A program made the position numbers and the translations under genes. The notes under the pieces were generated by a model, which saw only the letters and a program-made list of their open reading frames with translations, was not told where the DNA came from and did not search any database. DNA of 64,000 nt, taken from the NCBI GenBank assembly GCA_038049695.1, contig CP142453.1, positions 115,980,001 through 116,044,000 on the forward strand. Direction: 5' to 3'. Numbering within the stretch: the stretch's first letter is position 1; each line of letters starts with the position of its first letter. Below are positions 5,290 through 54,322 of this stretch, piece after piece. Source of the stretch: Cinnamomum chago (Eukaryota > Streptophyta > Magnoliopsida > Laurales > Lauraceae).

Positions 5290-5541
5290 TGTATAGAGTG
5301 ACAAATCGATGATTACAGAACATGGAGGAAAAATAATTCTCAACTGTATTATTTTTGTCCCCTTCCTTTGGAGATCGGGCCCCACTATATAGAGTAATAC
5401 ATGCCTCAATCAAGGCTTCTGAGTTAGGAAATTAGCTAATTACATCAATTACTATTCTAACTTTAGGAAACTAACTAATTACAAGAGAAAATCTAATTAT
5501 AAGAGATTATGTACAGTTGTTACAAGTTGACCCAATCAACA
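5290..5541 (-). mobile_element. Short solo-LTR or TRIM-like insertion in the copia RNase H region
   Basis: On the minus strand the piece runs from TGTTGATTGGGTC to TCTATACA, the TG..CA ends of an LTR. It has a TATA-like CTATATAG inside. The copia coding sequence resumes on both sides. The five flanking bases on the plus strand are CTCAC on the left and TTCAC on the right, a near-match target duplication. At 252 bp it is the size of a TRIM or Tnt1-like LTR. Confidence 0.55.
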
Positions 5542-5938
5542 TTCACGTGAGATGGAATTGAGACACACTTCTTTTTTTTTAGATGGTTTGATATTTGGAT
5601 CAAAAGGAGTGGACACACCATGACTTTCATATATGTCAAACCTTCGAAGCACTCTCTCACTATATTGAGATTGTGATGAAATAATACGTTCGAACTGTCT
5701 ATGGATTTTAATTCCCAAAATCACATTAGCCTCACCAATATTCTTAATGTCAAATTTTGAATATAGGTAACTTTTTGTGTTTTCAACATAATTCAAATCA
5801 TTACCATATATTAACTTATCATCTACATACAAGCATATAATGATGCAGGAGTTATTAACATGTTTGGAATATACAGTTTGTCTGATTTATTGATTCTAAA
5901 TCCATCAGACATCAATACTTGATCCAATTTCTCAATGC
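5542..5938 (-). pseudogene. Copia reverse transcriptase fossil, C-terminal part
   Basis: Minus-strand reading shows the catalytic box as MYVDDKLIYG, followed by the family's KFDIKNIGEANVILGIKI segment and the QSQYSERVL motif. It ends at the target duplication of the RTE LINE (5939-5952). The other part of the same domain continues beyond that LINE at 9302. Fossil. Confidence 0.85.
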
Positions 5939-5952
5939 ATTGTTTCGGTACT

Positions 5953-8900
5953 AGGGCATCCATCGCTTTAAGCGACAAACTGTGGTGGTGCTCAGTTGTA
6001 GTGAAAAGTAGGCAACGGTTCGTGTATTAATCTGGATGAGTGGGGATAAAGACATTAGTCCAGAAGAAGAGGAAGATTTGATTTGCTATTTGGAACATAG
6101 GAACTTTGATAGGCAAGAGCATGGAGTTAGTCAATGAAATACAAATAAAAAGAGTTGATGTGACCTGTCTACTGGAGATAACGTGGAAAGTGATAAAGCT
6201 AAGGATCTCACTAATGGCTACAAACTTTACTACGCATGAAAGAACAATGCCAGAAATAGAATAGGTATAGTAGTAGACTTTTAGTGATTAACTTAATGTT
6301 ACCATTAAAAAAAGCGATTAACTTAATGTTAGAGGAAGACACAATGCATATCATAGTGTCTATGCACCCCAAGCAGGATTAGATGACAATGTTAAGAGAT
6401 AATTTTGGGAGGAGATGGATGGTTTAATATGAGAAATCCCAACTAGTGAAAAGATTTTTATATGAGGGGACTTATGTGGGTATGTAGGAACTGATAGTAG
6501 AGGGTATGAGATAGTGCATGGAGGACAAAAATTTGGAGAAAGGAATGAATTAGGAGACACAATCTTGGAATTTGCATTAGCATTCAACCTTATAATAGCG
6601 AACACCTACTTTAGAAAGAGAGAGAATCATTTAATTACCCATAAAAGTGAAACTATTAGGAGCCGGAAAGACTTTTACTTAGAAAACATGGTTATCTAGC
6701 TTGTAAAGATTGTAAGGTTATTCCTGGAGAGAGTTTGACCACACAACATAGGAATTTTATCTTAGATGTTTGCATTAAAAATAGAAAGAGATATAGTAAA
6801 TAAAATGTGCCCTTAAACAAGGTGGTGGGATTTGAAAGGGGAAACTGTTCTATGGGCAGACTGCAAATGCAGTCAGCACCATGGGGCCCACTTGGGCCCA
6901 CCCTTGATCCATGCATTCCCTTTGATCTCGTCTTCCCATTATCCACATTGAACCTTCACTCATTGCCAGATTGAATCGCAACAAAATCTATTGTTAAAAT
7001 GTCATTAAACTTTTAAGTCTATTAAATCAAAGGCTAGGGTAATCTAGTGGGGCTGATTGTTTTGGCTCCTCATTTTTCATAAGGAGACCTTTCCATCTAC
7101 CCCTCTCATTGATAAAGATGCATCTAAGTAGGCCACTAGCTGAACTGCGTATCAGCAACATGTAGTCTGTTCCGAGGAGACCATTCTCCTTGAAAAGGGA
7201 AAGGGCATCAACATTTAAGGATAAAGTTACCAAGGGTGGAGAATGGGATTTGGAGAGAAAAAACTACGGTAATGTGAAATCAAATGCCTAAGTATATCAG
7301 AACAGTTGCAAAAAAGGTGCTTGGAGAATAAAAAAGGAAAAGACACTATGATAAAGAAACTTGGTGGTAGAGTGGAGAGGTCTAGGAACTTGTTCGAGAG
7401 AAAAGATGTTGTTACGAAGTTTGGCAGGGGACTAGGAATATGGAACATTATGAAATGTATATGAAGGCAGAGAAAGAAGTTATGAAAGTTGTAAGTAATG
7501 CAAAGTCCAAACTCTAAAGCATATGATGACCTATATAAAAAGTTGGAACAAGAGAGATATTTTCAAACTTGCAAAAATGAGGGAGAGGAAAAGTACAAAC
7601 TTATATCATGTTAAATGTATAAAGAGTAAGACCAATTTTTTTTAATGAAGGACAAGGACAATGCTATAAAAGAAAGGTGGATAGAGAATATTTTAGTAGG
7701 TTTTTAAATGAAGATTATATCGAACGAGGGAGTATACCTCATTAGTGAGACATACCCTCTACCACAAAATTAGGGTAGTAGAAGTGAAGAAAGCATTGGC
7801 AAAAATGAAGATAGGAAAGGCTATAGTGCTAGATGGCATTTTGATAGAGGCTTGAAAATGTTTAGGAGAAATTGGATGGATTTTGTTAACTAGGCTCTTC
7901 AATATTATATTAAATACAAAGAAGATGCCGGATGAATGGAGAAACAACATTGTAATACCTACACACACACACACACCCCTATATATATAAGAACAGAAGA
8001 GACATATAAAGTTACACCATCGTGGAATTAAACGTACAAGTCACACTATGAAACTATGGGAGAGAGTAATGGAGAAAAGACTTAGCCAAAAGACGAAGAT
8101 ATCTGAAAATCAATTTGGTTGCATGTTAGGGAGGTCAACTAGGAATTTATTTTCTCACTATGGTAATTAATGGGAAAAAGGCGAGAGGAGGAAAAATCTT
8201 CATATGGCCTTCGTTGATTTAGAGAAAGCCTACAACAAGGTACTTAGAGATTTAATTTGGTGGGTTCTAGATTAAAGGAGGGTTCTAAGAGGTTATATTG
8301 AAATCATTAAAGGCAAGTATGCGGGAGTGGTAACGAGTGTGAAAACTACCCAATGGAGAGACAAGTAAATTTTCAGTGACCATAGGTTTGCATTTGTATT
8401 AGGGATTAGCTTTAATCCATTATCTCTTACAATGGTTATGGACAATTTAGCTACTCATATTCAAGAGAAAGTTCCTCGGTGTTTGTTATTTGTAGTGATA
8501 TAGTGTTCATAGATGAATTAAGAGATGGCACGAATGCAAAACTGGAGAGATGACAGGAGACTTTAGAATCCAAGGGCTTTAAAGTAAGTGGCACTAAGAT
8601 AGAATATATGGATTGCAACTTATGTGGGGATATGCAAATAGCGGAAACTACTATGATAATTGCAGCTCAAGAGATACCATAAAAAGATTCATTCCGATAC
8701 ATTTGCTCGATAATTATAAAGGATGGAGAGATTGAGGAAGATTTTGAACATAAGATAAGAGCGAGATGATTGAAGTAGAGACTTGCTTTTAGAGTGCTTT
8801 GTGATCAGTGTATACCAATAAGATGGAAGGGAATATTTTAAAGGACAACAATTAGTCCAAGCTATAACCTATGGAGTAGAATGTTGGCTAATCAAGAAGC

Positions 8901-9287
8901 AACACATGCACAAAGAGTGTAGCAAATATGATAATGTTGGGATGGATGTATGGTAAAATTAGGAAAGATAGAATAAAAAAAGATTTCTTTTAGGATAAGT
9001 TAGGATCAACATTAATAGTGAATTAGTTATAAGACTAACTCGTTTGAGATGGTTTGAACATGTCAACATAGGCCAAAAACCGGCTCCATTGAAGAAATGT
9101 TTTTCTATGCAGGTTGATGGCCCTTCGAGGAGAAGGGGTGGACCAAAGAGGACATGGATGAAAATAGTAGGATAGATCTAAAGAAGTGTAACCTATGCAA
9201 AGATTTGGCTCAGGATAGATTAGAATGGAGAAACAAAAGTCATGTAGCAGGCCCTTACATAGTTGGAATAAGGCTTTGATGATGATA
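5953..9287 (+). mobile_element. Full-length RTE-clade LINE inserted in the copia element
   Basis: The near-perfect 14-bp target duplication ATTGTTTCGGTRCT flanks it (5939-5952 and 9288-9301, one mismatch). Endonuclease traces include WNIGTL (near 6095) and HGGQKFGERNELGD (near 6520). RT traces include DLEKAYN (near 8220), and a C-terminal block resembles RLRWFEHV (near 9040). The element ends in GATGATGAT, the short-repeat tail typical of plant RTE elements rather than poly(A). Without its internal 350-bp MITE it is about 3 kb, the expected full length. The frame is interrupted by many stops and frameshifts. It is later than the copia element and earlier than the MITE at 6840-7189. Confidence 0.88.
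6840..7189. mobile_element. hAT-like MITE, family M1 copy B, nested in the RTE LINE
   Basis: The LINE frame reads WWDLK up to this point and resumes with LK after it. The flanks are TTGAAAGG (6832-6839) and TTGAAAAG (7190-7197), an 8-bp target duplication with one mismatch. The ends are imperfect inverted repeats (GGAAACTGTTCTATGGGCAG against GGAGAATGGTCTCC). It is related to 2859-3230. There is no coding capacity. Confidence 0.75.
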
Positions 9288-9301
9288 ATTGTTTCGGTGC
9301 T

Positions 9302-9960
9302 TGTTTAGACCATTGATGGATTTTATTACCCTGCACACTTTAAGTTCTTGATATAGTGCCACATAGCCGTTGGGTTTTTCCACTTCTAGATCTCCATTTA
9401 GAAATGCGATTTTTACACCTTTCAAAAAAAAAAAATTTCAAATTTTACATTCATTTGATAAACTATCATAATATGTATGGAAGCTATTGCTATCTCAACT
9501 CTCTGATAGTTGTAATTCTGGTTATTTGGGGATAATTATCAAAGACGTCAACTTCGTCCTTTTGTTCAAACCCCTTAGCAATCAATCAATTTTTTTATTT
9601 TCTATGGACTCATTTAGTCCTAAGCTTCTTTTTGAATATCCATTTACAACCTAATAGTTTAGGTCCCAGGGGAAGGCCTACTAAATCCCAAGTGTGATTT
9701 GCGAAGTATTGATTCTATCTCATTAATTAGAGCTTCTCTCAATGCAGTATCTAGAGATTGCATAGCTTCACTAAATGTGGAGGGATCATTTTTCTAGAAT
9801 ATAAGTGTAAGAGCTAGGACCAAAGTCGGTTTCCTTTCTAGGTCTTTTGCTTCTGCGTGGTTTAATACTATCTATTTTTTTGAGATTATGCAGGCTCTAA
9901 CTCATTAGAAGTTATCTTTGGTTCATTTGACCTAACTTTGTAGGGATATTTTGGTTCAAA
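9302..9960 (-). pseudogene. Copia reverse transcriptase fossil, N-terminal part
   Basis: The minus strand reads VKIAFLNGDLE and, nearer the LINE junction, a segment resembling KVCRVIKSINGLNKH. This matches the canonical copia segment AFLNGDLEEE...KLxKSLYGLKQ. It continues across the RTE LINE at 5542-5938. Fossil. Confidence 0.8.
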
Positions 9961-12766: not shown

Positions 12767-13378
12767 TTCCTTTTTTTCTTAATTACAAATTTATTTGATT
12801 CAAAAACTAATTTGAATCACTTTTGCTCAATATAGAACCAAAGACCAAACTGTTCCAAACCTAGGGCACACAAATCACTTCGGTCAAAGTCAGAATTTGT
12901 TGGATGAGAGGCGAAGCACTACTTTCACCTTACCAATTACCTTTGTGGTGGAGGAGTTATCCATGTAGTATACTTGTCCATCTCCCAGAGTCTCGTAGGA
13001 GACTAATGCACCTCTGTCATGAAAGATGTGTTTGGTCACGCATGTGTCGACCCACCAATCTATTTTGTTGCAAATCATGCTCACCTCTGTCACCACTGCC
13101 ACGAAGTTGTCTTTCTTGTCTTCAGCGACATTAGCCTGACTCTTGTTATCGTTTGCCTTGTTGTGGCCCATAAGCAAAACAAATGATTTATTTTCTTTTG
13201 TTGATATCTTTGTGGGGATTAAGGTTCTGGTTCTGATTATTTCTCCTCTATTTTTTCTTGTTCTAGAGTACATTCTGTTTTGGTTTCTTCCTATCAGATT
13301 TTGTCTCGATCGGTTAGGCTTTCCCGCATGTTCAAAATCCCTACCCTTAGAGTCACAGTCATGAGGTTGTTCTTGCAT
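12767..13378 (-). pseudogene. Copia protease region fossil
   Basis: The minus strand reads WWVDTCVTKHIF, the family's W-x-x-D-(T/S)-G/C-A aspartic-protease site region, then DGQVYYMDNSSTTKVIGK. Before it is a basic, glutamine- and asparagine-rich stretch as found around the gag zinc knuckle. Past the protease the sequence reads LTLTEVICVP, like the family's LTDVLHVP. Fossil. Confidence 0.8.
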
Positions 13379-13736: not shown

Positions 13737-15130
13737 ATTATAGTACCTATATATAAGAAAAATGGAGATATACAAAATTGTATCAACTATCGTGGGATTA
13801 AACTTATGAGTCATACTATGCAGCTATGAGATAGAGTAATGAAGCAAAGAGTAATGAAGCAATGACTTAGACAGAAGACCAAGATATCTGAAAATCAATT
13901 CGGTTTTATGCCAGGGAGGTCAACGATGGAAGCTATTTTCTCACCTAGGCAATTAATGGAAAAATATCGAGTGAAGGAAAAATTTGATATGGTCTTCATC
14001 GATCTAGAAAAAGCCTACAACATGGTAAATAGAGATTTAATTTGCTGGGTTTTAAAAAAGAGGAATGTTCTAAGAGGTTATATTGAAATTATTAAAGACA
14101 TGTATGAAGGAGCAGTAACAAGTTTGAGAAGTACTTGTGGAGAGACAGGGGAGTTCCTAGTGACTATAGGTTTGCATTAGGGGTTAGCCCTAAGCTCTTA
14201 TCTCTTTGTACCGATTTATGGATGAGTTAACTACTCATATTCAAGAAGAGGTACCTTGGTGTATGTTATTTGCAAATGATATAGTGTTGGTAGATGAATT
14301 AAGAGATGGTGTGAATGCAAAACTCGAGAGATAACGGGAGGCTTTAGAATCCAAAGGTTTTAAAATAAGTCGTACAAACTACAAAGACGGAATATATGGA
14401 TTGTAACTTCAGTGGGCATATAGAAAGAGCTAAAACTGTTGTGAGAATTGAAGACCATGAGATACCATATAGTGATTCTTTCCGTTATCTTGGCTCTATA
14501 ATTAGTAAGGATGGGGAGATTGGTGAAGATGTCGAATATAGGATAAAAGCAGGATGGTTGAAGTGGAAACTTCCTTTTGGATTGCTTTGTGATCGACAAA
14601 TGCGAACAAAATTGTAGGAAAATTTTCATAGGACAACATTAGACCAGTTATGACCTATGTGTTAGGCCCTTGAGTGTTGCAATTGATGATGGATGCACAC
14701 ACTTTCACTTTGTCATGATCACACACTTGAGCTCTTAAATGTAGACTTGTTGGATCTTGGTTTCTTTCATGCATTCACATGATCTTGAAATGAATTTACT
14801 TCATGCATGTTTTAGAACACAAAACTCTTTTGAAAACCTACTTCTTTGTGAATTACATTTGGAAAATCTTTTTAAAGAATCTAGGTTTAAACCTTGCATA
14901 CATTCATCTCCTTCTAAATCATATTGGTATGCATTGTTTCTTTGAAAAAGAAGTTTTTAAGATTCAAGCTAGCTTTTGGGACTTAAACTTTTGAATCTTT
15001 TTAGGCCTTGGGTGTATCATGCTTTTAACATCTTAGAATTTCTTAAAACATGTTTTTAAGCTTGGTTAAGTGACCCACAAAATTCCACAAAGAAATCCTT
15101 CAAAATGCAAAGATGGAAATTTTGGGGTGT

Positions 15131-15290
15131 CCCGGCAGTGTCGCCGGTCGACCGAGACCTTGGTCTCGGTCGACCGAGACAACTGTCGGTGATTAGACAG
15201 GTTTTGAACCTGAAGCTCCAACGGTCAGAAATTCGACCGTTATGCTTTCTAGGTCGACCGAGACCTTCTAGGTCGACCGAGAAAACTAGC
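15131..15290. repeat. Four-palindrome GGTCGACC cassette in the LTR
   Basis: GGTCGACC occurs at 15146-15153, 15168-15175, 15252-15259 and 15271-15278, giving start-to-start spacings of 22, 84 and 19. The lead-in is GCAGTGTCGCC. The surrounding arms (for example GGTCTCGGTCGACCGAGACC) can form hairpins. The same design appears in a different LTR at 49305-49455. Confidence 0.9.
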
Positions 15291-15939
15291 CGTTGGACTG
15301 TTTTTTGTTATAAAGTCCATTCATTTCCAACCTTTTCAAAGAGTTGAAGCATGAACCTTTGAGACTATTTTGAAGCCAAAAGAAAGGGAAAACGTTGGAA
15401 AGGCTAGAAGCTTATTTGGAAATCAAATGTTAGAGTTTTAAAAAGGTATTCCATACTTTTCATTTTGATTTTCATTTAGTTTGAAATCAATGCATGCTTA
15501 CATGTTTGTATTACCTACTATGCATGATTTCTAGCTTAAAAGAGATGTTTTGCAAACTGAATATCTTCTATGGTAAAATTAATTAGTTTGCATACTCTCA
15601 TGATCTAATCACATATGTTCTTAGTCTTTAACTTTCATACAACTTGTTTATCTCAATTCTTCAAAGTTGTTTGAATCATTAATGTGATTAGTCTTAGCTT
15701 CAATCATCTATTTCCAAGCTTTGTTTTAAAATGCATCAAGCATTCAATTAAGAGCTTCACTTTTGAAATTGATTGAAGTACAACATACATACACTTGTTC
15801 ACACACACTTTAGTTTGTTTTAGTGTATGTTTGTTATTTGAATTGCACTTTCACATTAGCCTATTTAGAGGCAATTCATTTGAGCTAAAATTGTATCTCT
15901 TAGAGTGTTCTTGAAAAGACACCTTCTTAGAGAAAATCC

Positions 15940-16113
15940 AACTTGTAAAGGTTATTGCTTAGCCTTGAAAAGCAACTTGTAAAGGTTATTGCTTAGCCTC
16001 GAAAAGCAACTTGTAAAGGTTATTGCTTAGCCTCGAAAAGCAATTTGTAAAGGTTGTTGTTGAGCCTTAGAAAAACAACATTGTATAGGTTATTGCTTAG
16101 CCTTTGAAAAAGC
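15940..16113 (+). repeat. 34-bp tandem repeat, about five copies, inside the solo LTR
   Basis: The unit AACTTGTAAAGGTTATTGCT followed by TAGCCTYGAAAAGC is repeated three times almost exactly and twice with drift. There are no spacers, so this is a plain tandem repeat. Confidence 0.9.
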
Positions 16114-16793
16114 ATAAATAGTGGAAATCCGGTGGGGTGATTGGATCACAAGCCGGTAGTGGATGTAGGCATTGAGGCCGAACCACTATAAACCTTGGAG
16201 TTGTGGTGTTTGCTTGTGGTGCTTGTTTTCTTAGCTTCCGCATCTTGTCTGGTAAATCATGTTATATGACTAGTTTTCTTTAATTAATCAAAATTGGTTT
16301 TAATTGGTCATTTTTATAGGACACCCTATTCACCCCCCCCTCTAGGGTTAAGATCCCGTGGACTTTCACTATGGAGCAGAATGTTGTGCAATTAAGATGC
16401 AACATATGCATAGAATGAATGCAGTAGAGATGAGAATGTTGAGGTGATGTGTGGTAAAACTAGGAAGGATAAAATTAGAAATGAGCGCTTTGGAGAGCAT
16501 TTATGGATAGTAACAATAGGGGATAAAATTAGAGAAACCTGTTTGAAATGGTTTGGGCATGTCCAATGTAGGCCGGCAACGGCACCAGTAAGGAAAAATC
16601 TGGTTATGAAGGTTGATGGCCCACTAAGGGGAAGGGGTAGGTCAAAGAGGACGTAGATGGAGGTAGTAAAAGTAGATATGAAGAAGTGTAACTTATCTGA
16701 GGATTTGGCTCAAGATGAATTGGAATGGAGACGAATAATTTGTGTAGTTGACCCCAACAAAGTTGGGACAAGGCTTTGATGATGATGATCATA

Positions 16794-43441: not shown

Positions 43442-45784
43442 TCAGCACCTCCAAGCTGATACCGAGCAGAGCTCTCCACTCTGCCAGTAGAGATACAGAG
43501 ATGCTTGGCGCTTCTCTACATGAAATCCCCTCCCTTGAAACCTCCTCACCATGTACTCCCCCTGCGTCTCTGTGAAATTACTGAATGATAGAGGTGAAAA
43601 TCCAGCTGAATTAAATAGGGCCCTCCATGGTAGCATCTTTTCACCTGCCTGGTGCCGCCGCCCCAACACGACACTCTCAATCCTCGGCTGGAGAAGGGAC
43701 CTTTCAATCTTGCATACTGCATCAGAATTCACATTGACAGCATCAAGTGAATCAAACAAAACCGAATAGGATTGGAGAGCATGGAGGAAATGTTGGGGGA
43801 AAGGAAAATCACTTCGAACACATCCATGGTCAACTGAAACAACAATTTTTGGGGAGACCTGTTTCACTATACGTAGAAGCAAGGGTATCGGCAAATTGGA
43901 AGACCCAACCGGGAAATTCACAGCAATTGCTTCATTGTCCGAGAGATTAAGTATTGCTGATGCACCTAGTGACATAATTGTTGACCTATCAATGGCATCG
44001 ATATTGATCACATTAAATTGGAATGAGATGTTGAGACCATTTGCAAAGTGGGTGAGGTTTTCCTGAGTTAGACTGAGCTCCAGAGGGTGATGGGATGATG
44101 GGGATGCAAAGGCAGTTATTTTCAGGGTAGGAGTCCCACCAAGCCTCATGGCAAGCTCCTGCATAAAAGAAGCCCATTGTCCACCAATCCCAATATCAAA
44201 ATCTATTATGTGGATTCGATCGAACCCATCAAGAGCTTCCAAGAGCACCTGATTAGAGGTGAAATTCACGAATTGGAGGAAAGGTGAGATTTCAGAGAAG
44301 ACCTTGTATGCATTGATCTTGAAAACAACATCCAGGGGAGAAGCAGAGGAAGCCAGTGTGCTGTTGCAACCGGTAGTGGTGGCAGTTTTGAGAAGCAGCT
44401 GCAGGGCCTCCTTGAAGTAGAAAGCTGCCCTCTGTAGAGGCTTCCCAACATGGGAGAGCTGGTGATTGAGCCGCGCCAATATCTCTCGCGCGTGTCCGAA
44501 ATTCCCACTCTCGACCAGCTCAGCAGCCTTGTAGAGCTGGTCGACCAATGCCTGCTGGGTCGCATTCTCGAGAGAACCCACCACCTTCATCTTCGCCTGC
44601 CTCTTTTGGAGGTGATCGGGAATGAGATGTTCATTGACAAAGCTCTGTGGCGGTGGCCGCTGGAGAAGAAGCTCTTGACCCGAATCGGCGAAAGGGGTTT
44701 TGGGGAACTGGCAACTTGGGTCTATGACCGTGGGGTGGTGGCGCTTGGGCTGGGGTGGAAGAAGGTGCTGCTGCTCCTGTTGGGTATAAGAGAAAGGTAG
44801 CAAGAAAGCTGGGTTTTGATGATGATGATGATGAGGTGGAGGATTGGCTTGTTGCTGGTTTTGGAGATTGAAAAGCTGTGGTTTTTCATCAATCCCTTCA
44901 AACTGTTGCTGTTGCTGCTGCTGATAAAATGCACCCTGGGGTAGGGAAAGAGGGAGAGATAGAGGCAGAGCATTACTAGTAGCAGCAGAAAAGATGGGGT
45001 TCTGAGGAGTATTGTTGTTATTGCCCCCAAAGAAAGGGCTTTTCAGATTGGAAAGAGGATTGCTGCTGTTCAAAGCAAAATCAGTAGCAGCAGTAGAAGC
45101 AGCCAAAGGAGGAGCAATGGAACTCAAATTCACATTCCCCGGCGCTGAAACTCCTCCTTCAAACCCCAAACCCGGCTCGGCAACGCAGTACCCAGGTACC
45201 CCACCCTCAAACTCCGACGGCCCTCCTCCGCCGGTCTGCAACAGCTGCTTCAGAGATGGGTCATCAACGTCGCCCATAAACCACCGGAAGAACGAGTGGT
45301 CATTCCCCGGCGACACCTCCGACGACTCCGACAACATGTTCTCCCACTCCTCCATCCCAAACCCACCACCTCCGCCGCCGCATTTCTCTCCTCCTCCTCC
45401 TCCGGCGCTACTCATCTCCAAGGGGGTCGGAACCGGTTGCAGCTCCGGCGCCCACGCCTCCTTCCTGCCGCCGTCTGTCCCCGCTGCCGCAGCTCCGGCA
45501 GAGCTGTCGTCCTGGGAAGGCGGCCATTGGTGGAGGGGGTTGCCGGAAACCGCTGCCACGCCGGCGGTGTCGGTGGAGCCGCTGCTTCCGCCCAATGAAG
45601 TAGACAGTATCGATGTTGAAGTTTGAGGGCTGGGGCTCCTTCTCTGTTCCAGAACAGAGGTTGGTTCCGTGCTCCCGAAAAGACCCTCCTTTTCCCACTT
45701 CGCTGGTACTAAACCCGAAAAATCGGCCGCTACGTCCAAATCCAAGACCCCCTTCCCCTGCAAGTGAAAGGGCACGACCCTCAT
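43442..45784 (-). CDS. HAM: GRAS transcription factor of the HAIRY MERISTEM / SCL6-22-27 group
   Basis: One intronless 780-codon frame, normal for HAM genes. The variable N-terminus contains the group's EPTSVLEQRRSPSPQTSTS (about residues 40-58). Glycine-rich, polyglutamine and polyhistidine stretches follow. The GRAS domain occupies about 405-780: LRI (QALVDQLYKAAELVESGNFG), VHIID as IHIIDFDIGIGGQW (about 521-534), then the LRII, PFYRE and SAW parts, ending SVSAWRC. HAM proteins keep shoot stem cells undifferentiated and partner WUSCHEL-type factors in the nucleus. The first ATG gives MRVVPFHLQGKGVLDLD, the usual HAM start. The gene carries a miR171 site (44463-44483), so it should be cleaved post-transcriptionally. 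Upstream lie a CT tract and a 25-bp duplication. It looks intact. Confidence 0.97.
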   Translation of the reverse strand: MRVVPFHLQGKGVLDLDVAADFSGLVPAKWEKEGLFGSTEPTSVLEQRRSPSPQTSTSILSTSLGGSSGSTDTAGVAAVSGNPLHQWPPSQDDSSAGAAAAGTDGGRKEAWAPELQPVPTPLEMSSAGGGGGEKCGGGGGGFGMEEWENMLSESSEVSPGNDHSFFRWFMGDVDDPSLKQLLQTGGGGPSEFEGGVPGYCVAEPGLGFEGGVSAPGNVNLSSIAPPLAASTAATDFALNSSNPLSNLKSPFFGGNNNNTPQNPIFSAATSNALPLSLPLSLPQGAFYQQQQQQQFEGIDEKPQLFNLQNQQQANPPPHHHHHQNPAFLLPFSYTQQEQQHLLPPQPKRHHPTVIDPSCQFPKTPFADSGQELLLQRPPPQSFVNEHLIPDHLQKRQAKMKVVGSLENATQQALVDQLYKAAELVESGNFGHAREILARLNHQLSHVGKPLQRAAFYFKEALQLLLKTATTTGCNSTLASSASPLDVVFKINAYKVFSEISPFLQFVNFTSNQVLLEALDGFDRIHIIDFDIGIGGQWASFMQELAMRLGGTPTLKITAFASPSSHHPLELSLTQENLTHFANGLNISFQFNVINIDAIDRSTIMSLGASAILNLSDNEAIAVNFPVGSSNLPIPLLLRIVKQVSPKIVVSVDHGCVRSDFPFPQHFLHALQSYSVLFDSLDAVNVNSDAVCKIERSLLQPRIESVVLGRRHQAGEKMLPWRALFNSAGFSPLSFSNFTETQGEYMVRRFQGRGFHVEKRQASLYLYWQSGELCSVSAWRC
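44463..44483 (-). promoter_or_regulatory. miR171 target site in the GRAS mRNA
   Basis: The plus strand here is TGATTGAGCCGCGCC followed by AATATC, identical over 21 bases to mature miR171a. The mRNA is therefore fully complementary. It encodes ILARLNHQ at about residues 434-441, the position conserved in HAM genes. Cleavage would be between target bases 10 and 11. Confidence 0.95.
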
Positions 45785-48368: not shown

Positions 48369-50724
48369 TGTTAGGCTCCGTCCCGAGTTAATCTCGATTA
48401 ACTCTCATTAATGACGCTTACGATTAATTAAGCCGGTTTAGTAATTCGATGAAATCGAATTAGCCTAAATGAGTAAATTAGGCTTAATGAAATGTTAAGT
48501 GAAATTAGGAGTTGATGTACATAGAAATGAAGGTTCAATGAACAAATCAAAGACTTTTGGTATAAATACGGATTTGTACGTATTTTGTCGGATACGGAAA
48601 GTCTTGATACCAGCATGGGTATCTCGACGAATTTCATAAAAGACTTGAAGGGATTTGACGAGAAATGAATCAAGTGGACCTTGATTTGACTTGAAATGAG
48701 ATTAAAGGAAATAAAGGGGGGGGGGGGGTTAAATGCAACTTGGACCCTTATATAATCCAAATGAACTCATTTGAGTTCATTCATCATCTACAGAAACCCT
48801 AGACAACCTCCCTCTCCATCGTTTCTTCTTCTTTCTTCTGTTTCAAGCAAATTGAAGTGAGTGAATTGAAGAGAAGGTTATGCACTACATCTTCTTCATC
48901 TTCTATAGCCCCTTCATCAAGTTCTTTTGGATTTCCAAGGCTTCAAAGTGAGGATTTCCACCTTTGAAGCAAGCTCAACAATAGTGTTGTGCATCAAAGC
49001 TTCATTTAAGGCAAGTTATACATATGTTTATGATTGTTGGAGTGTTTTCAGTGAGTTTAATGGAAAAGAAATGATGGTTCAACTATTATGAGTGATTTAT
49101 GGATTTTGGAACCTTATTTAGGTTATGTAATTAATGTAATGGATTGAATGGATTTAAGTAGGGTTAGATTAATTAGATAATTAGTCTTGAGTTCATTTTG
49201 TTAAGTTTATAATTATATTGTCAATCAGGTTCAAAAAGAAGGGAAAAAGGAATGGGTGAAAAACCCATGCACTGCACTGCAGAACAGAACTTCGGTTCTG
49301 TTTCTGCAGTGTCGCCGGTCAACCGGCCAACAGGGCCTGGTCGACCGGGAACACTGGGTCAGGCCCGAAATGGCCTGACCAAATTACTGTTCACCTATTT
49401 ATTCAATACAATTCCAGGTCGACCGGGCCTTGCCAGGTCGACCCGGACCACTGGGAATTCTTTGAGAAACATAATTTAATCTCCGAATTTCCGGAATTAA
49501 GAGTTTAAGCTTAGAGATTGACCCAATTGTTCATAGTGAGAAAGATTTGGCCAATTGCTCGGACCGCCAGTGAGTTTTAGATTCTACGAAAACTAAAATG
49601 AGTCTTGAGGGAAGTATGACGAGTATTAATGTTATACCTCCATAAGTATTAACTAGGGTTATCCTAATGCATAATCATATACGTAATATCATCTATAGTA
49701 ATCTTTGCATTAATAACCAAAGTTACACTTATGGTTGGTTAGGAGATTACTTAAGACTTAGAATGAGATTAAATTGAATCGTCAACGAGACTGGCACTAC
49801 CTAGTGGTTTCCGAACTCATTATGAAATTGAATTGAATGACATGATAAATGAATGTAATGACTATTCCTACTACAGTAGATGAGAATGGGGTGTTCCGGA
49901 GCCCGTGGTGACACCAGTGATCTCTGATCAAGACACTGGGAGATCCCACCTTATTTGGACCGAAAGGTCATTGACTGAAAAGTTATACACTGAAAAGCCA
50001 TTAATAAAGGTTGAATCTAATGAATAAATGAATATGAATTTCTTCCTTTTGGAAGATTAAATGAATTGAATAGAGTTGAAACCAATACTAGTGTAGTTGT
50101 CATATTATTGTTATTGTTATTGTTATTTATGGTTATTTATGGTTATTATGGATTGTTTAGCACTGTTAAACAATGAATTGTTAGGAAATTGTAAATATGT
50201 TATAAATATATGTGTACCTTGTTGAACCGTCGTATTCACGGTATTACTGATGATATTACAGGCTCAGTTACCCGTGCCGGTCCCTCCGAGACCGTCCCGC
50301 CAGCGCAGGAGGCCCATTCGCTACCTCCAGGAGGTCTAGCTGAATGGACGTAATCAGAGAGCGGGTTCATTGAAGTCTTTTGGAAACTTTTTAGAAGTTA
50401 TTTATATATTCATTTTGGTATGGTAGGTGCTGTATATAATGTCCCCTGCATTGTATTTAAATATGCAGTGGTTGATTAGTAGGATAAATGAAACGATGTA
50501 AATGGACGGTACAATTTTAAAGTAAAGTGTTTAATTCACATTGATACATGGTTGTCAATGTATTTTATTTGTATATTCCGCACAACTGTACATTGACAGG
50601 TATTATGCAAGATCCCTTGTAGATTCGTTTTAACTTCGGTTATTTCGGATCTACGGGAGTAAGTATGAACATCGCGACCCGGGGTTAACCCTAATGACTC
50701 TGATCTCGGGTCTGGGTCGTGACA
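48369..50724 (+). mobile_element. Gypsy-type solo LTR 1 (2.36 kb)
   Basis: The ends are TGTTAGGCTCCGTC and GGGTCGTGACA, typical of Tekay/Del-like gypsy LTRs. The perfect 5-bp duplication TAGGG flanks it (48364-48368 and 50725-50729). There is a TATA box in CCTTATATAATCC (near 48749) and a GGTCGACC palindrome cassette at 49305-49455. A conserved short open piece after an acceptor-like site lies at 50262-50339. No internal region remains, so it is an LTR left by recombination. Confidence 0.85.
49305..49455. repeat. Four-palindrome GGTCGACC cassette in gypsy solo LTR 1
   Basis: GGTCAACC at 49317-49324, then GGTCGACC at 49339-49346, 49417-49424 and 49436-49443. The start-to-start spacings are 22, 78 and 19. 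The lead-in GCAGTGTCGCC is the same as at 15131-15290. Confidence 0.9.
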
Positions 50725-52058: not shown

Positions 52059-54322
52059 TGTTAGGCTCCGTCCCGAGTTAATCACGATTAACTCTAATTA
52101 ATTGAGTTGATGACTAATTAAGCCGGTTTAAATGAACTAATGGTGATTTATCGCCAAATTGATTGGAATTTGCCTAATGTAGGCTTAATAGTAACTGAGT
52201 TATGAAATGAATTGAATGGAAGGGAAAATGAAGCTCAAAGGAGTAAACCAAGGACTTTTTCGGAAATACGGATTTGTACGTATGTTGTCGCATACGGAAA
52301 GTCTTAATATCCGCATGTGTATCTCGACGAGTACGATAATTTTCATATACGACTTGAATTGATTCGACGAGAAATGAATCAAATGGACTTTGATTTGACT
52401 TGAATGAGGATTAAATGAAACTAATGGGCTTAAATGCAATTTGCGAGCTTATATAAGCAAATGAGTTGATTCATTTGACTCAAACCCTAGGCAACAATTC
52501 TTCTTCAGCCGTTTCTTCTTCGTCTTCCATTTTTCATTCGTTTCAAATGTGAATTGAAGTGATGGACTAGAGAGAAGTTGAATTACTTCATCTTCTTCAT
52601 CTTCTTGATCATCTTCTTAGAGTTTTTCTTGGAAATCAAGCTTCAAGTGAAGGAATTTCATCTCCAAGCTAAGTTAATCAAGGGAGAAACTTCATCTAAG
52701 GCAAGTATATGCATTTCTAGCAATTTGAGCTTTTATATAACTTGTATGAACTCAAGGAGTTCAAAAATGGGGTTTTTGTTCAGAGTTTCTGAAGCTCGAA
52801 AATGAGTTTCTGGGCGATTTTCGGCTAGCCGCGAGGCTAACCGCCATAAAAATCCGAAATTGGCGAGCTTCTGGAAAGCTAACCGCCAAATTTTGGTTAA
52901 CCGAAATTGGAATTTCGGCTAACTGCGAGGTGACCGAGATTGGTCAGAAATCCCTGTCAGGAAAATCAGATTCTGGAAAGCTGACCGCAGCTAACCGAAC
53001 TTGGTTCGGCTAGCCGCCAGCCGAATTTCGGCTAACCGCCAGTACGGTTCGGCTAGCCGCTTGCACAATTACGGCTAACCGCCAGGTAGCCGAATTGACC
53101 AGATTATTCGTAGTAAGGAAAATCAGTGAGTTTTGGAATTTTACGAAAACTAAGATCGCTTATGTGGTCATCAATGCTTCTCGTATAGTTAAGTGATATG
53201 TAAAACTCCATAAGTGTTAACTAGGGTTATTCGAATGCATAATCAACTAAGTAATATAATCAAAAGTAATACTTGCATTGATAACCAAAGTTGCACTCAC
53301 TGGTTGGTTAGAGGATTGGATAGAGGCTTACTTTAGAATGAGAATGAGATGGGTACGAATTGTTAAAGGGTCTGGCACTACCTAGTAGTTTCTTAAACTC
53401 CTTATTGAATTGCACTGAATGAATTGATAAATGAAATGACTATTCCTACTGCAGTAGATGAGATTGGGGAGCGTCCGGAGCTCCGTGGGACACCAGTGAT
53501 CTCTGATCAAGACACTGGAAGATCTCACTGCATTGGACCGAAAGGTCAAAGGATTGACGAATCCTAACCAATGCTGAATGTAAGTAATTGAATGAATATG
53601 AAATGAAAAGTCATACAAGGCCATAATAAATATGGAACAGAATGAATTAATATGAATATGAAATGCTTCCTTTTTGGGAAGAACTAAATGGAGTTGAAAC
53701 CAATGCTAGTGTAGTTGCCAGTATTATTGTCATTGTTATGGTATTATTCTGGATTACTTAGAATTGTTTAAGTCAATGTATTGTTAGGAATTGTTAGACA
53801 TATGTATATATCTTGTTGAACCGTCGTGTTCATGGTATTACTGATGATGTTACAGGCTCAGTTACCTGTGCCGGTCCCTCTGAGATCGTCCCACCAACAG
53901 AGGAGGCCCATTCGATATCTCCAGGAGATCTAGCCGAATGGACGTGACCTGAGAGGGGATAACATAGAATCTTTTGGAAACTTTGTATAAATTGTTTTGT
54001 ATAATCATTGTGGTATTGTAGGAATTGTATATGATGTTCCCTGCATTGTATTTCAATATGCAGTGGTTGATTAGTAGGATAAATGAAACGATGTAAATGG
54101 ACTGTACAGTTTTAAAGTAAAGTGTTTAATTCATTTTGTTAAATCATTGTCAATGTCTATTATGGGTATTTCCGCACAACTGTACATTGATAGGTACGTT
54201 TGCAAGATCCCTTGTAGATTCGTTTTAACTTCGGTTAATTCGAGTTTACGGGAGTAAGTCTGATTTCATCGCGACCCGAGAGTTAACCCTAATGACTCTG
54301 ATCTCGGGGCCGGGTCGTGACA
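52059..54322 (+). mobile_element. Gypsy-type solo LTR 2 (2.26 kb), sibling of LTR 1
   Basis: It starts TGTTAGGCTCCGTC and ends GGGTCGTGACA. It has its own perfect 5-bp duplication TCAAG (52054-52058 and 54323-54327). It aligns with LTR 1 along most of its length (for example ACGGATTTGTACGTATKTTG and GTGATCTCTGATCAAGACAC). In place of the GGTCGACC cassette it carries a GGCTAGCC/GGCTAACC array (52810-53100). Overall divergence is considerable, so the two are subfamilies or old insertions. Confidence 0.85.
52810..53100. repeat. GGCTAGCC / GGCTAACC palindrome array in gypsy solo LTR 2
   Basis: GGCTAGCC at 52823, 53008 and 53051; GGCTAACC at 52835, 53030 and 53073; GGTTAACC at 52895; several near-matches between them. 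Most sit in the context CGG...CCGC. Confidence 0.88.

What the first reader, a model, noticed from the sequence alone, without database searches (positions are those of the whole stretch)
15131..15290. The same four-palindrome cassette sits in two LTRs with different ends
GGTCGACC-type palindromes occur four times in the LTR at 14660-16368 (start spacings 22, 84, 19) and four times in the LTR at 48369-50724 (22, 78, 19). Both cassettes start with GCAGTGTCGCC just before the first palindrome. The flanking LTR sequences and terminal motifs do not otherwise look related. Chance cannot easily give equal spacing of four 8-bp palindromes. Inference: a mobile or exchanged module, or a structured leader element under selection (both lie in the transcribed part, after the TATA region).
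Basis: partly seen in the sequence, partly recalled or inferred. Interest (0 to 1): 0.72.

Follow-up and report, generated by a model that had tools for sequence, protein, structure and literature searches.

The report
Palindrome module shared by unrelated retrotransposons
A short DNA module made of paired palindromes, present thousands of times in this plant genome and mostly in the promoters of Sirevirus-type jumping genes, also sits inside unrelated Ty3/gypsy-type jumping genes, which suggests that these genomic parasites trade control sequences.

Summary
Two solo LTRs carry four GGTCRACC palindromes (starts 22/84/19 and 22/78/19 apart) behind an identical GCAGTGTCGCC lead; outside the cassette they do not align.

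LTR A is a Sirevirus (Ty1/copia) LTR. LTR B belongs to a Ty3/gypsy family. A third solo LTR, C, is a B relative whose same slot holds a different palindrome array (CGGCTARCCG).

Lead plus first palindrome occurs 6,432 times in this 1.06-Gb plant genome (reversed control 0). Of the first 100 listed places, all on one contig, 90 are Sirevirus LTRs, 4 gypsy-B, 5 another LTR-like family (D, module inverted), 1 ambiguous.

The shared unit is a 49-52 bp nested inverted repeat whose non-palindromic bases also match between families (0 of 300 shuffles for each of four modules tested).

MYB3R-type MSA sites lie in the cassette region of 66 of 90 Sirevirus copies, 0 of 9 B/D copies.

Best reading: a Sirevirus promoter "RM" array (described in 2010) whose module was copied into gypsy LTRs. 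Sharing is strongly supported; direction and function as a protein-binding enhancer are inferred.

The parts
14660..16368 (+). LTR A: Sirevirus-type solo LTR, target duplication CTATG at 14655-14659 and 16369-16373
   Evidence: ends and duplication; the paralogous segment without the insert joins at 8869-8873
15135..15297 (+). Cassette A: lead, four palindromes, linker and two MSA-type sites
15135..15185 (+). Module I of A: 51-bp nested inverted repeat GCAGTGT...AACTG holding palindromes 1 and 2
15146..15153 (.). palindrome 1 (GGTCGACC)
15168..15175 (.). palindrome 2 (GGTCGACC, centre of an 18-bp dyad 15163-15180)
15252..15259 (.). palindrome 3 (GGTCGACC)
15271..15278 (.). palindrome 4 (GGTCGACC)
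15217..15227 (+). MSA-type site TCCAACGGTCA in the linker
15287..15297 (-). MSA-type site TCCAACGGCTA
15309..15314 (+). TATA box, 30 bp after the last palindrome
16333..16340 (+). polyC stretch near the LTR end (Sirevirus integrase-signal position)
   Evidence: compared with PMC2829016
48369..50724 (+). LTR B: Ty3/gypsy solo LTR, target duplication TAGGG
   Evidence: family identity from L034
48749..48755 (+). TATA box of B, conserved in C
49035..49530 (+). Variable slot of B (no similarity to the slot of C)
49306..49443 (+). Cassette B: lead and four GGTCRACC
49306..49356 (+). Module I of B, 51 bp
49274..49312 (+). Preceding hairpin CACTGCAGAACAGAAC-TTCG-GTTCTGTTTCTGCAGTG, which shares the lead with module I
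52059..54322 (+). LTR C: solo LTR of the B family, target duplication TCAAG
52722..53107 (+). Variable slot of C
52822..53081 (+). Palindrome array of C: nine CGGYTARCCG (at most 1 mismatch), 5 of 8 spacings 19-22 bp
   Evidence: shuffled mean 0.06, largest 2

Best explanation
The cassette is the repeated-motif (RM) array of Sirevirus promoters in this plant. Its core is a 49-52 bp nested inverted repeat: arms GCAGTGT / ACACTG around two GGTCGACC dyads about two helical turns apart. In Sireviruses two such paired units plus MSA-type AACGG sites sit in the 175 bp before the TATA box. I infer that they work as DNA: binding sites for dimeric host factors (palindromes) and MYB3R (MSA) that drive transcription, plausibly in dividing cells. 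The same module was copied, most likely from Sireviruses, into a variable slot of Ty3/gypsy LTRs of family B and, inverted, into family D. There the slot lies downstream of the TATA box, where an orientation- and position-tolerant enhancer could still work. The transfer step (template switching between co-packaged RNAs, or gene conversion) is inferred. Shown: sharing, geometry, slot turnover, position, MSA enrichment. Not shown: binding, expression, direction of transfer.
For: Genome count 6,432 exact against 0 reversed controls. First 100 listed places: 90 Sirevirus, 4 gypsy-B, 5 D, 1 ambiguous, by both flanks except the last. Sirevirus identity: PBS junction in 12 of 19 loci, polyC signal in 18 of 19, PPT AGGGGGAG in 14 of 19, several of the rest being lone LTRs. 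Gypsy identity of B: Retrotrans_gag, Ty3_capsid and RVP_2 behind a B-family LTR end and PBS. Slot B matches cassette A (0 of 300 shuffles as good) but not slot C (237 of 300 as good). The collinear pairing of the four palindromes is the best of 24. With the searched 19-mer dropped and palindromes masked, four gypsy-B/D modules still match Sirevirus modules (0 of 300 each). D module against Sirevirus L023: 92% over 51 bp. MSA in 66 of 90 Sirevirus regions, 0.1 of 90 expected on shuffling. TATA 164-178 bp after the lead start in 17 of 19 loci. Dyad of palindrome 2 extends to TCYCGGTCGACCGRGA with a T-A to C-G switch.
Against: In families B and D the slot lies after the TATA box, so a transcribed RNA element is equally possible there; B and D lack MSA sites in the tested region (0 of 9). 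The three cassettes of the window all fold far better than shuffles as RNA (z -9.1, -6.7, -5.1). In module II the own-dyad of palindrome 4 is poorly kept (0.47, 0.26, 0.32). B's cassette is no CpG island above the rest of its LTR. One of four flank comparisons of A with B is marginal (10 of 200 shuffles as good). Sequence copies are related, so shuffles overstate independence. Only one contig stretch (C1, 0-40 Mb) was classified. Family D's superfamily was not determined.
Confidence: 0.6

Rival explanations
1. Convergence: one host factor selects the same palindromic site in unrelated LTRs, and the families built the arrays independently.
For: Palindromic CGG-CCG repeats recur in divergent Sireviruses of distant plants (PMC2829016 Table 3). 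The C array shows gypsy LTRs can hold other palindromes, with similar 19-22 bp spacing.
Against: An 11-bp non-palindromic lead is identical in A and B, and non-palindromic bases outside the searched 19-mer match too. Lead followed by GGNNNNCC gives 6,550 places, 6,432 of them GGTCGACC.
Confidence: 0.15
2. RNA-level function: the arrays form hairpins that act as siRNA/RdDM triggers, packaging or dimerisation signals, or splicing regulators, rather than protein-binding DNA.
For: RNA folding z-scores -9.1, -6.7, -5.1. Outer arms CAGTGT/ACACTG: the unsearched 3' arm ends CACTG or AACTG in 31 of 32 distinct Sirevirus modules. In maize, palindrome-rich Sirevirus LTR regions are small-RNA mapping hotspots (PMC5311732, passages). 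Genomic RNA carries the 3' LTR U3, so even the Sirevirus array is transcribed once (general knowledge).
Against: In Sireviruses the array precedes the TATA box. Stem pairing between sites is weaker than the own dyad of palindrome 2 (0.62-0.91 against 0.88-1.0 over the four innermost pairs) and poor in module II (0.47, 0.24, 0.29 in the innermost three). Palindromes fold whatever their role.
Confidence: 0.3
3. The 50-bp inverted repeat is itself a mobile hairpin (a MITE-like insert) that landed in several LTRs.
For: Terminal inverted arms, both orientations, unrelated hosts.
Against: All but one of the first 100 listed places could be assigned to three LTR contexts; no target duplication was noted at its edges, though none was searched for systematically. 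The larger cassette, not only the 50 bp, is collinear between A and B.
Confidence: 0.05
4. A and B are one LTR family and the cassette is ordinary descent.
For: Both start TGTTAGGC and carry 5-bp target duplications.
Against: Only the cassette aligns: two BLAST matches, 52 and 32 bp, both inside it. A and B carry different 3' ends, and only A has the polyC signal. B is gypsy by gag and protease.
Confidence: 0.02

Closest known systems
Sirevirus repeated motif (RM) boxes, Bousios et al. 2010 (PMC2829016; passages and section 9 read)
   Same: Palindromic CGG-CCG boxes clustered in the upper half of the LTR, CpG-rich, just upstream of a TATA box. The Vitis RM consensus CGGTCGACCG equals the palindrome of A. 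The Citrus RM core CGGCTWRCCG fits the array of C.
   Different: RM-bearing elements there have at least eight copies; here four exact palindromes per LTR. RMs are called Sirevirus-specific there, in a comparison with other Ty1/copia elements; here the module is also in Ty3/gypsy LTRs. No lead, paired-unit geometry or MSA sites appear in the passages I read.
Maize Sirevirus LTR palindromes as small-RNA hotspots (Bousios et al. 2016, recalled and seen only as cited in PMC5311732 and PMC10760457 passages; the paper itself is not held)
   Same: Palindrome arrays in the LTR regulatory region of Sireviruses.
   Different: Different motif (CACCGGACNNNGTCCGGTG). [quoted passage not shown]
Maize palindrome shared by Copia elements and Helitrons (PMC10760457 passages)
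   Same: One palindrome in two transposon superfamilies of one genome.
   Different: Copia and Helitron there; here Copia and Ty3/gypsy, with lead, arms and spacing shared as a block.
MSA element / MYB3R sites (core AACGG; PMC8964727 and PMC10905365 passages; the full consensus YCYAACGGYYA is recalled)
   Same: Perfect consensus matches on both strands close to the TATA box of LTR A, in variable number and orientation.
   Different: Known from host cell-cycle genes. None of the 20 rows shown of 70 papers held both MYB3R and the terms LTR retrotransposon or Sirevirus.

Membership tests
Sirevirus LTR (for LTR A) | Palindromic RM cluster in the upper half of the LTR | tested here: met
   cassette 476-638 of 1709 bp; four copies, fewer than the eight or more reported
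Sirevirus LTR (for LTR A) | CpG island at the RM cluster with TATA box shortly after (average 37 bp) | tested here: met
   CpG o/e 1.30 at 15110-15309 against 0 at 14660-15084 and 15410-15909; TATA 30 bp after the last palindrome
Sirevirus LTR (for LTR A) | PolyC integrase signal about 21 bp from the LTR end | tested here: met
   polyC at 16333-16340, LTR ends at 16368
Sirevirus LTR (for LTR A) | CA/ATTGG-TATCAGAGC junction and multiple AGGGGGAG PPTs | tested here: met
   LTR A is solo; L014, 97% identical to it, has the junction and five PPTs; 12 of 19 and 14 of 19 loci
Sirevirus LTR (for LTR A) | Sirevirus-type reverse transcriptase | tested here: not met
   no RT in 10 ORFs from seven related loci: one zinc knuckle above the curated cut-off, one below it, one PF20167, seven without a match. 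These short elements look gag-only, so this bears on autonomy and leaves the RT phylogeny untested
Ty3/gypsy (for LTR B and C) | gypsy-type gag and protease behind the LTR and PBS | tested here: met
   L034: PF03732, PF19259, PF08284; one B-family element examined
Ty3/gypsy (for LTR B and C) | pol order RT-RNaseH-integrase | not tested
   the stretch fetched ends in the protease; a copia element is nested before gag
Sirevirus RM array (for cassette B) | lies in a Sirevirus LTR upstream of the TATA box | tested here: not met
   gypsy LTR, 557 bp downstream of the TATA box
MSA element | match to YCYAACGGYYA near a transcription start | tested here: met
   two in LTR A, 66 of 90 Sirevirus regions
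MSA element | bound by MYB3R, G2/M expression | not testable with these tools
   needs binding or expression data

The most novel reading that the evidence does not exclude
A portable, orientation-tolerant enhancer module built of helically spaced palindromes is traded between Ty1/copia Sireviruses and Ty3/gypsy elements of one genome and re-slotted on either side of the TATA box. In Sireviruses it is combined with MYB3R (MSA) sites, so these retrotransposons would time their transcription to dividing cells.
Probability: 0.35. Interest if true: 0.82.

Novelty: new variant of a known kind. Interest (0 to 1): 0.63.

Why it matters
LTR promoters evolve fast, and it is open whether families invent regulatory arrays or acquire them. 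Here one non-palindromic-plus-palindromic block is shared across the two plant LTR superfamilies, and one gypsy slot holds several alternative arrays. That makes cross-family exchange of promoter parts directly testable with ordinary genome data. The MSA sites give a concrete, testable guess at when these elements are transcribed: 97-100% identical LTR pairs in 12 of 12 loci compared point to recent activity.

Tried and rejected
One-family descent: rejected by whole-LTR comparisons. Geometry alone as proof: weakened. IMG/VR scans: three patterns gave nothing; a fourth gave five contigs whose GGTCGACC repeats have no similarity to the LTRs and were dropped. Rfam (0 families at gathering score) and tRNA search (0) gave nothing. 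Strict 10.5-bp phasing of all palindromes: A fits (R 0.88), B does not (0.33), C is middling (0.61). Later, four-palindrome Sirevirus cassettes showed middle spacings of 74-77 or 83-87, none at 78-82 (55 distinct: 33 and 22), about one helical turn apart; shared ancestry is not excluded, since upstream flanks join into one cluster at 80%, and it stays a lead. Covariation cannot decide DNA dyad against hairpin cleanly. The 'A outside vs B outside' row was spoiled by N runs and replaced. The gypsy-context count (TTCTGTTTCTGCAGTGTCGCCGGTC) and the CGGCTARCCG pair count did not complete, so whether Sireviruses here also carry C's array is unknown. Rows dropped: L009 and L028 (second palindrome missing) and L012 (near-duplicate); the shuffle test there took four of the six gypsy-B/D modules. 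In one search, L001-L009 and L034-L044 were left out as unrelated, duplicates or not among the 100 places.

The 20 ten-kb loci were my choice from the 100 listed places, leaning to same-strand pairs, so fractions are taken only, which covers all 100. The 100 are the first listed, all on contig C1, and only exact 19-mer matches, so decayed copies are missed.

Full report
What is in the window. The finding's motif and coordinates hold: four GGTCRACC at 15146/15168/15252/15271 and four at 49317/49339/49417/49436, with an exact GCAGTGTCGCC before the first of each. All three LTRs concerned are solo LTRs with perfect 5-bp target duplications: A 14660-16368 (CTATG), B 48369-50724 (TAGGG) and C 52059-54322 (TCAAG). 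A's insertion site is visible as a paralogous segment without the insert (13748-14659 and 16369-16789 match 7982-8873 and 8869-9289). The window is plant DNA: a 780-codon ORF carries a GRAS domain.

A and B are different elements. BLAST of LTR A against LTR B finds two matches, 52 and 32 bp, both inside the cassette. Of four flank comparisons, three are at shuffle level and one is marginal (10 of 200 shuffles as good). A has a CpG-rich cassette in LTR stretches without CpG, a TATA box 30 bp after the last palindrome, and a polyC signal about 28 bp before its end, the layout described for Sireviruses in PMC2829016 (passages and section 9). B and C have no polyC run and their TATA box lies 557 and 372 bp upstream of their arrays.

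C is the natural control. B and C are one family (70-78% identity over the first 600 and last 1160 bp), yet the slot 49035-49530 / 52722-53107 is unalignable. Slot B scores like shuffles against slot C (237 of 300 as good) but matches cassette A better than all 300 shuffles. Slot C holds nine CGGYTARCCG (0.06 expected), with spacings 12, 60, 22, 72, 19, 22, 21, 22, partly a 43-bp tandem.

Genome survey. The window is C3:115980001-116044000 of a 1.06-Gb assembly in 14 contigs. GCAGTGTCGCCGGTCGACC occurs 6,432 times and its reversed control 0 times. Lead plus GGNNNNCC occurs 6,550 times. I fetched the surroundings of all first 100 listed places and assigned them by flanks: 90 Sirevirus, 4 gypsy-B, 5 D, 1 ambiguous, L072. 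In 19 ten-kb Sirevirus loci, 12 have the CAATTGG/CAAGTGG-TATCAGAGC junction, 18 the polyC signal and 14 the AGGGGGAG PPTs; several of the rest are lone LTRs. A TATA box follows 164-178 bp after the lead start in 17 of 19. Ten ORFs from seven of these loci gave no reverse transcriptase; one has a zinc knuckle above the curated cut-off, one below it, one PF20167, so these short elements look non-autonomous and their Sirevirus identity rests on cis motifs.

B is gypsy. A stretch behind a B-family LTR end (L034) has the PBS TGGTATCAGAGC and ORFs with Retrotrans_gag, Ty3_capsid and RVP_2; a copia element is nested in it on the other strand. A 535-bp query from B's 3' part had 2,156 first-look candidates, of which 40 were scored, all at 88% or more. 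Of eight such slots fetched, two carry the lead cassette (L037, L041) and six other content, keeping only about 36-38 bp at the last palindrome. L009/L016 and L011 hold a third variant. So the slot turns over within one gypsy family.

Family D (L010, L012, L013, L048, L066) has a TATA box, a CT-rich leader and then a slot which by eye holds about five palindrome pairs; the lead is on the strand opposite to the TATA box (L010). Its 3' end GGGGCGTTACA is inferred from two copies that diverge there; neither 7-kb stretch behind it showed a PBS. Its superfamily is not determined.

The shared unit. Module I is 49-52 bp: GCAGTGTCGC-CGGTCGACCG-about 12 bases-CGGTCGACCG...ACACTG, a nested inverted repeat. 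D's module matches Sirevirus L023 at 92% over 51 bp. L008 and L032 match B at 88% over 51 bp. Because places were found by the 19-mer, I dropped it: remaining identities average 0.82 within Sireviruses, 0.78 D-Sirevirus, 0.76 B-Sirevirus, 0.68 D-B and 0.88 within B. With palindromes masked as well, four of the six B/D modules were shuffle-tested against Sirevirus modules: best 0.76-0.84 against null maxima 0.69-0.74, 0 of 300 each. The module follows neither superfamily nor LTR relationship.

Geometry. First spacing is 22 in 80 of 90 Sireviruses; in B 23, 23, 22 and 85; in D 20 four times and 22 once. In 69 Sirevirus cassettes with four palindromes the last spacing is 22 (62), 19 (6) or 20 (1) and the middle 74-77 or 83-87. 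Window A (84, 19) belongs to this family; B (78) falls between the two middle classes.

Mechanism. Among 32 distinct modules, palindrome 2 extends to the dyad TCYCGGTCGACCGRGA (pairs kept 0.97, 0.88, 0.97, 1.0, with a T-A to C-G switch). The stem between palindromes 1 and 2 is weaker further in (0.91, 0.88, 0.62, 0.69) and that between 3 and 4 poor (0.47, 0.24, 0.29); palindrome 4's own dyad is poor too (0.47, 0.26, 0.32). This leans to protein-binding DNA sites without excluding hairpins; as RNA the window's three arrays fold with z -9.1, -6.7 and -5.1. Two perfect MSA-type sites lie in LTR A at 15217 and 15287 (window expectation 0.16 for all matches; a third is at 9364). In Sirevirus regions 66 of 90 have one, 54 of 73 distinct cassettes, 0.1 of 90 on mononucleotide shuffling; B 0 of 4, D 0 of 5. 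The core AACGG and its loss-of-function effect are from passages of PMC8964727 and PMC10905365; the full consensus is recalled. I therefore commit to: Sirevirus promoter array, DNA-level enhancer, MYB3R input, module copied to gypsy. Sharing about 0.85, direction about 0.65, DNA-level role about 0.55.

Known or new. RM boxes are known; Vitis CGGTCGACCG and Citrus CGGCTWRCCG are listed in PMC2829016, where 'Sirevirus specific' rests on comparison with other Ty1/copia elements. In maize the Ty3 elements lacked such a peak and a Copia palindrome recurs in Helitrons (PMC10760457 passages). My ten paper searches (listings, several capped at 20 rows) showed no title or abstract start reporting such sharing between Sireviruses and gypsy LTRs or MSA sites in LTRs; I read only the passages named. 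Hence: new variant of a known kind.

Noticed in passing
49008-50261 (LTR B) and 52698-53855 (LTR C): Conserved GC-AG intron-like signals: AAG|GCAAG after the CT-rich leader and TTACAG|GCTCAG near the 3' part, so the palindrome slot would lie in a leader intron. LTR family D has the same AAG|GCAAG before its slot (L010, 1150 in element orientation).
   Followed up: partly
7982-9289 and 13748-16789: A segment duplicated at about 73-76% identity; the second copy is split by solo LTR A, giving an empty site for its insertion. The nature of the segment is unknown.
   Followed up: partly
15939-16110: 34-bp tandem repeat, five copies, in the 3' half of LTR A; matching blocks recur in the related Sirevirus LTRs.
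   Followed up: no
L014 (3068-4345, - strand): A 426-codon ORF with PF20167 (putative plant transposon protein) inside a short Sirevirus with 99.6% identical LTRs; no reverse transcriptase was found in the four ORFs tested.
   Followed up: no
C1:32566803-32582322 and C1:37707917-37718299: Lead matches at exactly 5,167-bp and 5,182-bp steps on one strand: head-to-tail LTR-element arrays sharing LTRs.
   Followed up: no
L034 1652-5539 (- strand): A Ty1/copia element with gag, integrase and split RVT_2 nested in a gypsy-B element between PBS and gag.
   Followed up: no
43442-45784 (- strand): GRAS-domain gene with a 780-codon open frame; it holds a lone GGTCGACC at 44539.
   Followed up: no
5539-5886 and 12893-13378 (- strand): Fragments of copia pol: RVT_2 and Pol_BBD.
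   Followed up: no
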